DNA from: Bacteroidales bacterium KHT7
GTDB taxonomy: Bacteria; Bacteroidota; Bacteroidia; Bacteroidales; Bacteroidaceae
DNA length: 64,000 bases
Assembly (NCBI GenBank): GCA_900102385.1
Contig: FNBQ01000003.1
Span: 6,787-70,786 of the forward strand
Reading direction: 5' to 3'
A program made the position numbers and the translations under genes. The notes under the pieces were generated by a model that was not told where the DNA came from, did no database searches, and saw only the letters and a list, made by a program, of their open reading frames with translations. Positions 1 to 59,781 of the stretch are shown here, in pieces; positions within the stretch are counted from its first letter, which is position 1; each line of letters opens with the position of its first letter.

Positions 1-66
1 CCTACCTTCTTCCTACCTTCTTCCTACCTTCTTCCTACCTTCTTCCTACCTTCTTCCTACCTTCTT
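1..66. repeat. 11-bp tandem array, six exact copies
   Basis: Six perfect head-to-tail copies of the 11-mer CCTACCTTCTT fill positions 1-66 and a partial seventh (CCTAC) follows. The array probably continues left of the window edge. It is the 11-bp part of a composite repeat also found near 31.5 kb and, inverted, near 59.6 kb. There are no spacers between units, so it is not a CRISPR array. Confidence 0.95.
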
Positions 67-84
67 CCTACGACGCATATACTA

Positions 85-114
85 AACGAACAATTTCTGA
101 CGAAATTGTTCGTT
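85..114. other. perfect 13-bp hairpin between the two repeat arrays
   Basis: AACGAACAATTTC (85-97) is the exact reverse complement of GAAATTGTTCGTT (102-114), with a 4-base loop TGAC. No T-run follows on the plus strand, so it is not a clear terminator. It lies between the 11-bp and 7-bp arrays of repeat copy A. Confidence 0.8.
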
Positions 115-145
115 ATAAATCCTCGGCAATTATAAAAGCAATTTT

Positions 146-208
146 GAATTATGAATTCTGAATTGTTAATTGTCAATTGTCAATTGTCAACTGTGAATTG
201 TGAATTGC
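146..208. repeat. degenerate 7-bp tandem array (copy A)
   Basis: Nine consecutive 7-mers of the form (G/C/T)AATTGT run from 146 to 208 (GAATTAT, GAATTCT, GAATTGT, TAATTGT, CAATTGT twice, CAACTGT, GAATTGT, GAATTGC). The same 7-bp motif accompanies the 11-bp arrays near 31.7 kb and 59.5 kb, so both belong to one dispersed composite element. Confidence 0.85.
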
Positions 209-230
209 TTTGAATTGTCAAAGAATAAAC

Positions 231-15259: not shown

Positions 15260-15332
15260 GCGGAAGTAGCTCAGTTGGTAGAGCACAACCTTGCCAAGGT
15301 TGGGGTCGCGGGTCCGAGTCCCGTTTTCCGCT
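15260..15332 (+). tRNA. tRNA-Gly(GCC), first copy
   Basis: A 73-nt cloverleaf. The acceptor GCGGAAG pairs with TTTCCGC, the D arm is AGCTCAGTTGGTAGAGC, the anticodon loop is TTGCCAA (GCC) and the T loop TTCG-type arm is intact. CCA is not encoded. It is identical to the copy at 15552. Confidence 0.95.
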
Positions 15333-15340
15333 CAAATAAA

Positions 15341-15423
15341 GCCCAGGTGGTGGAATGGTAGACACGTACGTTTCAGGTGCGTATGTCTTTGCGGACATGC
15401 AGGTTCGAGTCCTGTTCTGGGCA
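15341..15423 (+). tRNA. tRNA-Leu(CAG)
   Basis: An 83-nt class II tRNA with a long variable arm. The acceptor GCCCAGG pairs with TCTGGGC. The anticodon stem TACGT/GCGTA holds loop TTCAGGT, giving anticodon CAG. Confidence 0.93.
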
Positions 15424-15447
15424 CGACTGGTATGACCGAGATATTTT

Positions 15448-15530
15448 GGAGAGGTGGCGGAATGGTAGACGCGCTACTTTGAGGGGGTAGTGGGAGTTGT
15501 CCCGTGGGAGTTCGAGTCTCCTTCTCTTCA
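15448..15530 (+). tRNA. tRNA-Leu(GAG)
   Basis: An 83-nt class II tRNA. The acceptor GGAGAGG pairs with TCTCTTC (with G-U pairs). The anticodon stem CTACT/GGTAG holds loop TTGAGGG, giving anticodon GAG. A long variable arm is present. Confidence 0.92.
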
Positions 15531-15551
15531 CAATATAAAACATTCAGTAAT

Positions 15552-15624
15552 GCGGAAGTAGCTCAGTTGGTAGAGCACAACCTTGCCAAGGTTGGGGTCG
15601 CGGGTCCGAGTCCCGTTTTCCGCT
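15552..15624 (+). tRNA. tRNA-Gly(GCC), second copy
   Basis: Identical over all 73 nt to the tRNA-Gly at 15260, so it is a duplicated gene within one operon. Confidence 0.95.
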
Positions 15625-25737: not shown

Positions 25738-25750
25738 CAGCCGTATATGA

Positions 25751-25830
25751 CAAAGGGGTGCCTGAAAAGGCTGAGATTATACCCTTATAACCTGATCCGG
25801 TCAATGCCGGCGTAGGGATTGTTTCTACAG
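25751..25830 (+). ncRNA. TPP riboswitch (THI element)
   Basis: The conserved aptamer parts appear in order: GGGGTGCC, GGCTGAGA, ACCC, ACCTGATC, CCGG-TCAATGCCGG and CGTAGGGA. It binds thiamine pyrophosphate and represses the downstream genes. About 40 nt separate the end of the aptamer from ATG 25873. No strong terminator hairpin is visible there, so control is more likely at translation initiation. Confidence 0.95.
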
Positions 25831-25872
25831 TTCACATTCATCCGCCCTTGTCTATATATAAATTAAGGTAAG

Positions 25873-30010: not shown

Positions 30011-30805
30011 ATGATAAACAAACTATTAGTCATAATCTTTGCCTTCACCTTGTGCAATAACGCCAATGCTAAATGTAAAGCCGATTTGTTTGCCGACAAA
30101 GTAAACATCAGCATTTGGATAAATGGCATATTTTTCGAAAGCAACTTTACAATTACCGAAAATCAACTTGTTTACAGTCGAAAATATTGCAACGTTGAAA
30201 AACAGAAATCAAACAACAACGGGAAAATACGCAAGATTGTTTTAGACAACGATTCGGCTAAAACATGTATCGAATACGCAAGAAATCTGTTCTTCGAACA
30301 CAATAGACATCTCGTAAGAAGCACGAAATCAGAAGAGAAATCATACGATACGCCAATAATCAAAATAACCTACTACAAAGGAAAAGACATCATACTAAAA
30401 AAGTGTTTCCTGTATTCAGAAAAACTTGCAGAATACGACGAACAGTTCACCTTTATGTACCAGTTTTTCAATTCGATAATAAATAAGGAGAACAAAATTG
30501 TCGGCTACAAAGAAAGTGAGTTTTTCTGGCTTGAATATGACAATATTGACATGTTTCAGCAAACAGAAATAAACCGCAAGACTCAAGAGGTTTTCAGCAA
30601 TGATTCATACGGAACAATACTAATCTTAAAAAAGTTAGCAGAATACAAAGAAGAACTCAACAAAAAATACAACAAGAAAAGGTTCAATTCGGCAAAACGA
30701 ATTAAGCATAAAATCCAGAAAACAAGAAAGAAAAACCTTAAACCCAAATCGGTCATTAGAAATTTTGCCTTACATAATGTTCAGATAAGTGTTCGGAGCC
30801 TATAA
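30011..30805 (+). CDS. secreted hypothetical protein whose C-terminus is supplied by an inverted-repeat element
   Basis: A 264-residue AT-rich protein with a signal peptide (FAFTLCNNANA). No domain is recognised. The C-terminal third is strongly Lys/Arg-rich (KKYNKKRFNSAKRIKHKIQ). The last 21 residues, from KPKSVIRN on, are encoded by the left arm of the inverted-repeat element at 30741-30896. The natural C-terminus has therefore probably been replaced or extended by insertion. Base composition is lower in GC than the flanking prs gene, consistent with accessory DNA. Confidence 0.6.
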   Translation: MINKLLVIIFAFTLCNNANAKCKADLFADKVNISIWINGIFFESNFTITENQLVYSRKYCNVEKQKSNNNGKIRKIVLDNDSAKTCIEYARNLFFEHNRHLVRSTKSEEKSYDTPIIKITYYKGKDIILKKCFLYSEKLAEYDEQFTFMYQFFNSIINKENKIVGYKESEFFWLEYDNIDMFQQTEINRKTQEVFSNDSYGTILILKKLAEYKEELNKKYNKKRFNSAKRIKHKIQKTRKKNLKPKSVIRNFALHNVQISVRSL

Positions 30806-30896
30806 AAATATAAGCGAAAATTGCTAATGATTGACTCTGAATAATTAAACCAACTTACATTTTGCTACTTATTTTTTCTAATGACCGTTTTGGGTT
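30741..30896. mobile_element. 156-bp inverted-repeat (MITE-like) element, copy 1
   Basis: The left arm AACCCAAATCGGTCATTAGA (30741-30760, plus AA) is matched by its reverse complement at 30875-30896 with one mismatch over 22 bp. The interior is AT-rich and non-coding. The ends match those of a second element at 33166-33347, which shows they are one family. There is no transposase inside. It ends the upstream ORF. Confidence 0.75.
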
Positions 30897-31036
30897 AAAA
30901 AACAAAAAAGATATTACAACAGAAACATAAAGAATCTGTCGCCAACATCATCAGTATAAAAACCGAAAAATCCATCATCACAATTCTTCAGTTTGAATTT
31001 TGATGATAGATTTTCAGCCTTTTCACCGAGAAGAAG

Positions 31037-31491: not shown

Positions 31492-31634
31492 GCTTATGTG
31501 CGGCTTGCTTCTCCGAATCTTCCTCGAACCTTCTCCGTACCTTCCCCGTAGCTACTCCCTTACCATCCCCTTACTTTCGGCTTACTAACGGCTTACCATC
31601 GGCTTGGCATCGGCTTACTTCAATATAGCTTGCC
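31492..31634. repeat. degenerate 11-bp tandem array (copy B)
   Basis: Thirteen consecutive 11-bp units can be marked, for example CGAATCTTCCT, CGAACCTTCTC, CGTACCTTCCC, GCTTACTAACG, GCTTACCATCG and GCTTGGCATCG. The period is kept strictly while the sequence drifts. It is the same kind of unit as in copies A and C. Confidence 0.85.
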
Positions 31635-31783
31635 TCAATGTAAAATCTATCTTGATGTGAATTTTCAACTTTCTCTACTAAAGAAATTGTCAATTGTCAC
31701 CTGTCATTTGTGGATTGCTTAAGTTTTTTCAACTTTCAAGTTTCAATTCTCAACTAAGAAAATTATCAATTGTGAATTGTAAA
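31620..31783. repeat. composite repeat copy B: conserved core plus 7-bp array
   Basis: The core at 31620-31677 (AATATAGCTTGCCTC then ATGTAAAATCTA) matches the complement of 59540-59598 at about 51 of 58 positions by hand count. It is followed by 7-bp units (CAATTGT, CACCTGT, CATTTGT) at about 31688-31718 and a tail CAACTTTCAAGTTTCAATTC also shared with copy C. There is no gene in 31343-31863 apart from this element and the permease promoter. Confidence 0.85.
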
Positions 31784-31824: not shown

Positions 31825-31832
31825 TACCTTTG
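31825..31832 (+). promoter_or_regulatory. -7 box of the permease gene
   Basis: TACCTTTG, 31 bp before the ATG. TTTG at 31796-31799 is 25 bp away, longer than usual. Confidence 0.5.
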
Positions 31833-59422: not shown

Positions 59423-59429
59423 TTTTAAA

Positions 59430-59598
59430 CAATTCACAATTTTTTTAGTTGAGAATTGAAAGCTGAAAGTTGAAAAACTTGAGCAATTCACAATTGACAA
59501 TGGACAATTGACAATTTTATTTAATTGAAATTTGAAACTTAGAGAAAGTTGATTATTCGTATCAAGGTAGATTTTACATAGAGGCAAGCTATATTTAA
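59430..59598. repeat. composite repeat copy C (inverted): 7-bp array and core
   Basis: On the minus strand this repeats copy B: the tail (complement of GTTGAGAATTGAAAGCTGAA), 7-bp units of the CAATTGT type at about 59484-59515, then the core at 59540-59598. Core identity with 31620-31677 is about 51 of 58 by hand count. The orientation is opposite to copies A and B. There is no gene in the 59423-60092 interval. Confidence 0.85.
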
Positions 59599-59781
59599 GT
59601 AAGCCGACGGTAAGGGGATGTCAAGGGAGTACCAAGCCGAAAGGTATGGAGTAGATACGTTCAAGATACGGAGAAGTAAGCCGGAAGATACGGGGTAGGA
59701 ACGGAGTAGCTACGGGGAAGGTTCGGGGAAGATACGTCCAAGGTACGTCCAAGGTACGTCCAAGGTACGTCCAAGGTACGT
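59588..59781. repeat. 11-bp tandem array of copy C
   Basis: About 17-18 consecutive 11-bp units. The right end is homogeneous: GGTACGTCCAA at 59742-59752, 59753-59763 and 59764-59774, GATACGTCCAA at 59731-59741, and a partial copy to 59781. Towards the core the units drift, yet keep the period of 11. It is homogenised at one edge and degraded at the other. Confidence 0.88.

What the first reader, a model, noticed from the sequence alone, without database searches (positions are those of the whole stretch)
1..215. First copy of a composite repeat made of an 11-bp array and a 7-bp array
Two different short tandem arrays, with periods of 11 (1-66) and 7 (146-208), stand next to each other. The same pair occurs near 31.5 kb and 59.6 kb, so it is a dispersed element and not chance. 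The 11-bp units here are perfectly uniform, which suggests recent expansion. A period close to one helical turn, in spacer DNA, could affect DNA bending or protein binding. I know of no named family for this.
Basis: seen in the sequence. Interest (0 to 1): 0.6.

Follow-up and report, generated by a model that had tools for sequence, protein, structure and literature searches.

The report
Dispersed 11-bp phased intergenic repeat arrays
This rumen-type Bacteroidales genome carries on the order of a hundred intergenic DNA arrays built of variable 11-bp units that keep an exact 11-bp rhythm (about one turn of the double helix), often beside 7-bp arrays; the rhythm seems to be preserved while the sequence varies, which hints that a protein reads one face of the DNA.

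Summary
In detail: window 1-71 is a perfect 11-bp array, 140-207 a 7-bp array. It is one copy of a dispersed family: 24 such 11-bp arrays in 736,847 bp of four large contigs, none in called genes, none in Markov DNA. Seven-bp arrays accompany them far above chance, mostly on the same strand. The 'core' is only more 11-bp units; the copy at 1-215 lacks it and has a hairpin instead. The own 11-bp profile was found in 2 of 61 genomes, both of this genus; 7-bp arrays in 10 of 61. The striking property is register: 263 of 265 unit steps are exactly 11 bp although adjacent units differ at 3.2 of 11 bases. Against a sister species 10 of 13 array indels are 11 or 22 bp, and small indels are six-fold rarer than in adjacent intergenic DNA. 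Another Bacteroidales genome has its own 11-bp arrays, several genera have 21-23-bp ones. Best reading: a minisatellite-like element, similar in kind to BrickBuilt and heptamer arrays, whose helical phasing is selected, probably for protein binding. Binding is inferred; neutral slippage is a serious rival.

The parts
1..71 (+). 11-bp array, unit TACCTTCTTCC, perfect copies; continues left of the window (C32 from 6653) beyond a 10-N assembly gap
87..112 (.). Palindromic hairpin module CGAACAATTTC-TGAC-GAAATTGTTCG (tail type T2); 20 copies in the own genome, 12 in the sister genome, in GAAC/GTTC and GGAC/GTCC versions
140..207 (+). 7-bp array, unit AATTGTS
31505..31636 (+). 11-bp array, copy 2 (12 units as detected)
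   Evidence: orthologous in G001, which has 22 and 11 bp more
31615..31658 (+).
   Evidence: sequence
31661..31781 (+). Region with the 7-bp arrays (TTTCAAC and AATTGTC types) of copy 2
59428..59558 (-). Region with the 7-bp arrays of copy 3
59559..59778 (-). 11-bp array, copy 3 (20 units)

Best explanation
A genus-specific family of dispersed, polar, composite intergenic elements: a run of variable 11-bp units, often followed by a recurrent tail module and by 7-bp arrays on the same strand. Units are gained and lost whole, blocks of array content are copied to or exchanged between loci, and the exact 11-bp register is maintained by selection. The most likely use is as a DNA platform: a protein with relaxed sequence specificity binds once per helical turn on the same face and assembles side by side along the array (nucleoid, partition or regulatory complex). 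Shown: family, polarity, register, whole-unit turnover, scarcity of A-tracts. Inferred: selection as the cause of register keeping. Not shown: the protein and the purpose.
For: Register: 263 of 265 steps are exactly 11, two are 22, none 10 or 12, although the detector reports on average 3.65 of 5 and 13.1 of 20 planted 1-bp indels; 145 distinct units among 289, adjacent units differ at 3.24 of 11 bases. Between species, in 11 retained arrays: indels 8 x 11, 2 x 22, 1 x 10, 2 x 1; small indels (<=6 bp) 2 in 1400 array bases, 25 in 2890 adjacent intergenic, 2 in 2445 coding, 6 in 607 7-bp-array bases; Fisher P = 0.003 against intergenic and 0.012 against 7-bp arrays, bases taken as independent. 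Array substitutions 41/1400 against 785/3164 at four-fold sites. A second Bacteroidales genome, G061, has 276 matches (overlapping and both-strand ones counted) of five CGT exactly 11 bp apart, 0 backwards, with otherwise variable units; 14 of 20 arrays of period 15-40 outside long open frames in 17 sampled genomes have periods of 21-23 bp.
Against: Adjacent non-array intergenic DNA is nearly as conserved (111/2890; 37 non-array regions, median 4.7%, pooled 852/8560), so low divergence alone does not single out the arrays. The small-indel test rests on 2 against 25 events in 11 loci, and set against substitutions P is only 0.028. Two loci hold different array contents in the sister species, which a site-specific role would not predict. 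A per-position test gave no clear anchor positions (on an alignment partly out of register). No consistent orientation to genes. No match to the ribbon-helix-helix family RHH_1 in the own genome.
Confidence: 0.42

Rival explanations
1. Neutral minisatellites. Slipped-strand pairing and ectopic recombination make and turn over 11-bp and 7-bp runs in intergenic DNA; the register is kept because slippage itself copies whole units, and no protein is involved.
For: Array length changes mostly by whole units; contents at one intergenic spot are replaced between sister species at two loci; no fixed orientation to genes; heptamer repeats are the most abundant class in most genomes surveyed and a polymerase-slippage cause has been proposed (Mrazek 2007 as reported in PMC4679880, passages seen).
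Against: Units have diverged a good deal yet show no 10- or 12-bp steps; retained arrays are about eight-fold less diverged than four-fold sites, though so is neighbouring intergenic DNA nearly; 7-bp arrays in the same elements do take small indels (6 in 607); the unbiased scan of the own sample found no 10-bp and two 12-bp arrays among 45, against 22 of 11 bp.
Confidence: 0.33
2. Mobile composite element of the MITE/BrickBuilt sort: leader, minisatellite and tail moved as a unit by a transposase supplied in trans; the arrays are passengers.
For: Three separate places (C32:66k, C32:156k, C44:62k) share a long ordered set of units and the following tail, and a fourth (C32:38k) shares its 3' part; 19 of 24 arrays end in one of four recurrent tails, assigned by eye; BrickBuilt of Porphyromonas gingivalis has the same layout (PMC4596501: abstract and two sections read).
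Against: No terminal inverted repeats seen: longest exact inverted match between flanks 8 bp in 23 composites (imperfect repeats were not sought). No empty site was seen in the loci compared, whereas a MITE-like element at 30738-30899 shows inverted ends and an empty site in G001.
Confidence: 0.15
3. Promoter-associated regulation: unit starts (TANCTT) resemble the Bacteroidales -7 box TAnnTTTG (recalled, not from a call), so arrays act as decoys or weak promoters, their length tuning nearby genes.
For: Perfect TAnnTTTG boxes lie about 46 and 43 bp beyond the 7-bp arrays of copies 1 and 2, at 254-261 and 31825-31832 (sequence); of 18 composite edges facing a gene start, 13 have such a box before the start (no chance level was computed); BrickBuilt segments have promoter activity (PMC4596501 abstract).
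Against: The distance from the composite edge to the box is scattered (43 to 395 bp in the 13 edges), and 5 of 18 edges have none, one of them (copy 1) only because my gene call starts too early; of 21 placed arrays 8 are between divergent and 4 between convergent genes.
Confidence: 0.08

Closest known systems
BrickBuilt, Porphyromonas gingivalis (PMC4596501; abstract and two sections read)
   Same: Bacteroidales; intergenic only; imperfect tandem units of variable number; leader and tail modules; species-limited; 19 copies in strain ATCC 33277
   Different: 23-nt units, inverted-repeat ends and predicted long stem-loops; here 11-bp units, no inverted ends seen, copy 2 not unusually folded as RNA (z -0.69 and -0.97), 7-bp arrays as part of the composite
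Heptamer tandem arrays (TAACTGA repeats, PMC4679880, passages seen; cyanobacterial STRR, recalled)
   Same: 7-bp direct repeats in intergenic DNA with patchy phylogeny; covers the 7-bp half of this element
   Different: Other heptamers; here coupled to 11-bp arrays on one strand
ParR/parC and Omega/parS plasmid centromeres (PMC9426499 and PMC9499535, passages seen)
   Same: Tandem direct repeats of 11 bp (R1), 10 bp (pB171), 20 bp (pSK41) or 7 bp (pSM19035) on which ribbon-helix-helix proteins assemble: similar unit lengths
   Different: Plasmid loci; here many chromosomal loci with varied units; no RHH_1 match found in the own genome

Membership tests
BrickBuilt-type MITE | Tandem units of 23 nt | tested here: not met
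   Period 11 in 263 of 265 steps
BrickBuilt-type MITE | Terminal inverted repeats | tested here: not met
   Longest exact match 8 bp in 23 composites; imperfect ones not sought
BrickBuilt-type MITE | Always intergenic | tested here: met
   0 of 24 in called genes; 21 between two called genes, 3 not placed
BrickBuilt-type MITE | Recurrent tail beside the array | tested here: met
   19 of 24 have one of four tails, assigned by eye
Heptamer (STRR-like) arrays | Contiguous 7-bp repeats in intergenic DNA | tested here: met
   For the 7-bp part only: 38 AATTGTS arrays in 736,847 bp (0 in Markov DNA), 6 called genic; 29 TTTCAAC arrays (3 in Markov DNA), 2 called genic
Heptamer (STRR-like) arrays | Unit of 7 bp throughout | tested here: not met
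   11-bp part
Phased A-tract curved DNA | A-tracts at helical spacing | tested here: not met
   6.8 against 128.6 tract bases per kb
ParR/parC-type centromere | Ribbon-helix-helix binding protein | tested here: inconclusive
   PF01402 has no match in the own genome; other such families not tested
ParR/parC-type centromere | Protein assembly on the repeats | not testable with these tools
   needs binding experiments
CRISPR | Constant repeats separated by spacers | tested here: not met
   Head-to-tail units without spacers

The most novel reading that the evidence does not exclude
Bacteroidales chromosomes carry genome-wide arrays in which the conserved trait is the helical period (11 bp, or 21-23 bp in other genera) and not the sequence: each genus has its own unit and period, read by a fast-evolving protein that polymerises along one face of the DNA, a chromosomal counterpart of ParR/parC or Omega/parS.
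Probability: 0.2. Interest if true: 0.8.

Novelty: new variant of a known kind. Interest (0 to 1): 0.6.

Why it matters
Bacterial intergenic minisatellites are often taken for slippage products. Arrays whose sequence drifts while their 11-bp register does not would be a direct sign that helical phasing is what is selected, and would point to an unknown array-binding protein in gut and rumen Bacteroidales. Period classes of 7, 11 and 21-23 bp across genera make this testable by comparative genomics and by binding assays with shifted spacing. Arrays also lie at gaps and contig ends, so draft genomes may hide their true lengths.

Tried and rejected
A-tract bending, RNA structure of the 11-bp array, known RNA families (only a TPP riboswitch and four tRNAs in the window) and transposition by exact inverted ends were tested and not supported. 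A coding role was set aside because unit indels of 11 and 22 bp are not multiples of three. Orientation to genes showed nothing clear. The per-position substitution test gave no clear pattern of anchor against variable positions, and its alignment was out of register at C32:38291 (28.8% difference there, 2 of 132 when realigned), so the comparison was redone with cheaper gap extension; the per-position test itself was not redone. The first divergence figure for the arrays (6.4%) was inflated for the same reason. Of 12 own arrays with any aligned base, 11 were used; C17:105341 (31 of 44 bases aligned) was left out, and L031 was covered only in part (158 aligned bases of a 308-bp array). Fourteen further own arrays in the compared loci outside C17 and C35 had no aligned base: for several no G001 sequence was held there, and the finding's own array is replaced in G001. 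Period survey: the stretches of G009 and G015 were partly chosen near 7-bp hits known, so their share of 7-bp arrays is biased upward; for the own sample the Markov control covered 180 kb only; at the lower threshold 35 E. coli gave one array (period 18). Of the 21-23-bp arrays in relatives, at least one 21-bp case (L213:229) is a 7-bp array in disguise. The crude open-frame filter put 16 further 21-23-bp arrays into 'within a >=100-codon frame' (of 44 so placed); they are not counted among the 14. The 110-kb G001 sample gave only two arrays in the period scan (periods 11 and 21). Literature searches behind 'no report seen' were made, in an open-licence library only; papers outside it may describe such arrays.

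Full report
What was seen. The window starts inside a perfect 11-bp array (1-71) and has a 7-bp array at 140-207. The window is G000:C32:6787-70786 of a 3.79-Mb, 61-contig genome. The array starts about 134 bp further left, with more varied units, and a 10-N gap lies just left of window base 1. Similar arrays lie at 31505-31636 (+) and 59559-59778 (-).

How many, and where. A 44-position sequence-only model finds 145 matches at E<=0.01 in the own genome; only 150 of 957 candidates were scored, and one array can give several matches. In 736,847 bp (contigs C32, the window's own, C17 and C35 whole, and C21 1-200000) a position-weight scan finds 24 arrays, 0 in second-order Markov DNA; none is inside a called gene and 21 are placed between two called genes: 8 divergent, 4 convergent, 9 co-directional. 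By proportion that is about 120 in the genome. Genes were called by my own codon-usage script, so calls are approximate. The backwards-read control of an earlier scan rang 4 times against 11 real, which I attribute to the periodic, pyrimidine-rich make-up.

Composite and polarity. Of the 24 arrays, 14 have a TTTCAAC-type and 15 an AATTGTS-type 7-bp array within 200 bp; random placement in intergenic DNA gives means of 2.5 and 3.1 and at most 8 in 500 trials. Strands agree 19:0 and 20:3, and the AATTGTS type is on the 3' side in 15 of 20 same-strand cases. The two 7-bp profiles sometimes call the same array; the TTTCAAC profile rang 29 times in real and 3 times in Markov DNA. On the other side, 17 of 38 AATTGTS arrays have no 11-bp array within 300 bp. 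The T2 hairpin has 20 copies in the own genome and 12 in G001, 0 in G009 and G015, with paired GAAC/GTTC and GGAC/GTCC versions. Three separate copies, C32:66k, C32:156k and C44:62k, share a long ordered set of units and differ among themselves by gaps of 11 bp or few multiples of it; C32:38k shares the 3' part. So content was copied as a block.

Register. Steps between units are 11 in 263 of 265 cases and 22 in two. Adjacent units differ on average at 3.24 of 11 bases, random pairs at 5.18, and there are 145 distinct units among 289. The same detector reports on average 3.65, 6.75 and 13.1 off-register steps when 5, 10 and 20 single-base indels are planted, so their absence is real within the arrays detected.

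Sister species. G001 is the MAG Bacteroidaceae bacterium RGIG8161 (water-buffalo rumen), judged by equal contig lengths. In 11 retained arrays the aligned bases differ at 41 of 1400, other intergenic bases within 350 bp at 111 of 2890, and four-fold sites within 3 kb at 785 of 3164. Non-array intergenic regions are also well conserved (37 regions, median 4.7%, pooled 852 of 8560), so low divergence is not special to arrays. The 13 array indels are 8 x 11, 2 x 22, 1 x 10 and 2 x 1, against 2 of 30 of length 11 or 22 in adjacent intergenic DNA (Fisher P = 8e-6). Small indels (<=6 bp) number 2 in 1400 array bases, 25 in 2890 intergenic, 2 in 2445 coding and 6 in 607 bases of 7-bp arrays (P = 0.003 against intergenic, 0.012 against 7-bp arrays, 0.028 when intergenic small indels are set against substitutions). 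Two loci, the finding itself and C44:7.3k, hold different array families in the two species at the same intergenic spot, and the 59.6-kb copy has no counterpart where the alignment with G001 ends beside it.

Wider distribution. The own 11-bp profile was found in 2 of 61 genomes (own and the only other member of the genus searched), 0 of 59 others of the family and order (stricter filters were in force, so weak matches may be missed). The AATTGTS pattern occurs in 10 of 61. A scan of GTDB contigs for one unit type gave 34 stretches: 24 in RGIG8161, 3 in the MAG Bacteroidales AS15tlH2ME_224 and 7 in others. AS15tlH2ME_224 (G061) has 276 matches, overlapping and both-strand ones counted, of five CGT at 11-bp steps, 0 backwards; the own genome has 207, with 24 backwards, and four other genomes reached through one search have 0, 2, 0 and 0. 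G061 units are otherwise variable and some arrays invert around a centre (by eye). A period scan (1-40 bp) shows 11 and 7 as the main periods in the own sample (22 and 11 of 45 at threshold 37), 11 in G061 (5 of 8), and 7 and 21-23 in several other genera, with 0 in third-order Markov DNA (own control 180 kb) and 0 at >=36 in 200 kb of E. coli K-12. Outside >=100-codon open frames, in 17 genomes sampled (18-173 kb each, own and G001 not among them), 45 arrays of period 5 or more were found: 13 of period 7, 5 of period 11 (in G061) and 14 of period 21-23; the last are 14 of 20 with period 15-40. Some stretches of G009 and G015 had been chosen near 7-bp hits, and one 21-bp case is a disguised 7-bp array.

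Mechanism. The register behaves like a reading frame, but units are added by 11, which is not a multiple of three, so the natural frame is the DNA helix. A-tracts are nearly absent in the arrays, RNA folding of copy 2 is ordinary on both strands (z -0.69 and -0.97; the strong fold of 1-215, z -4.88, is due to the hairpin), and no Rfam family matches there. That leaves protein binding at one site per turn as the simplest functional reading. Plasmid centromeres have such repeats of 11, 10, 20 and 7 bp under ribbon-helix-helix proteins (passages of PMC9426499, and PMC9499535); the unit lengths are alike, but RHH_1 (PF01402) has no match in the own genome, so I claim likeness only. Neutral slippage with block copying explains much and is opposed chiefly by the register and indel argument, whose between-species part rests on few events.

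Known kinds. BrickBuilt (abstract and two sections of PMC4596501 read) shares layout, order and intergenic habit but has 23-nt units, inverted ends and predicted stem-loops. Heptamer arrays are known from several phyla (passages of PMC4679880). I saw no report of 11-bp phased arrays in the searches named under Tried and rejected.

Noticed in passing
window 30738-30899: About 160-bp MITE-like element with 25-bp inverted ends (92% complementary); nine copies at 95-98% identity in G001, while the orthologous G001 site lacks it.
   Followed up: partly
G009, G015, G003, G014, G008, G011, G030 samples (L206-L264): Tandem arrays of 21-23 bp, each genus tending to one period, sequence different at each locus; some units look palindromic (by eye and by a simple score without a null).
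   Followed up: partly
G018: 42 matches of the backwards control of the heptamer pattern, i.e. a different heptamer array family in another genus.
   Followed up: no
L151 4132-6535 (own C30): A 2.4-kb segment with a predicted lipoprotein-like gene (by eye) is present in own and absent in G001 directly beside an 11-bp array: arrays may mark sites of gene gain or loss.
   Followed up: partly
own contig ends (C12, C17, C35, C43, C60, C33, C58) and the gap left of the window: Several contigs end in or near these repeats or their hairpin, so arrays may be longer and more numerous than assembled.
   Followed up: no
L123: A contig filed under Ruminococcus MAG RUG10904 carries this genus's arrays and a flanking module also seen at window 59.8 kb; probably mis-binned.
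   Followed up: no
L022, L033, L059: Other palindromic dispersed repeats (e.g. GCCGAATTCGGAAATTCGGC) near arrays, REP-like.
   Followed up: no
window 25744-25835; 15260-15624: TPP riboswitch and four tRNAs.
   Followed up: no
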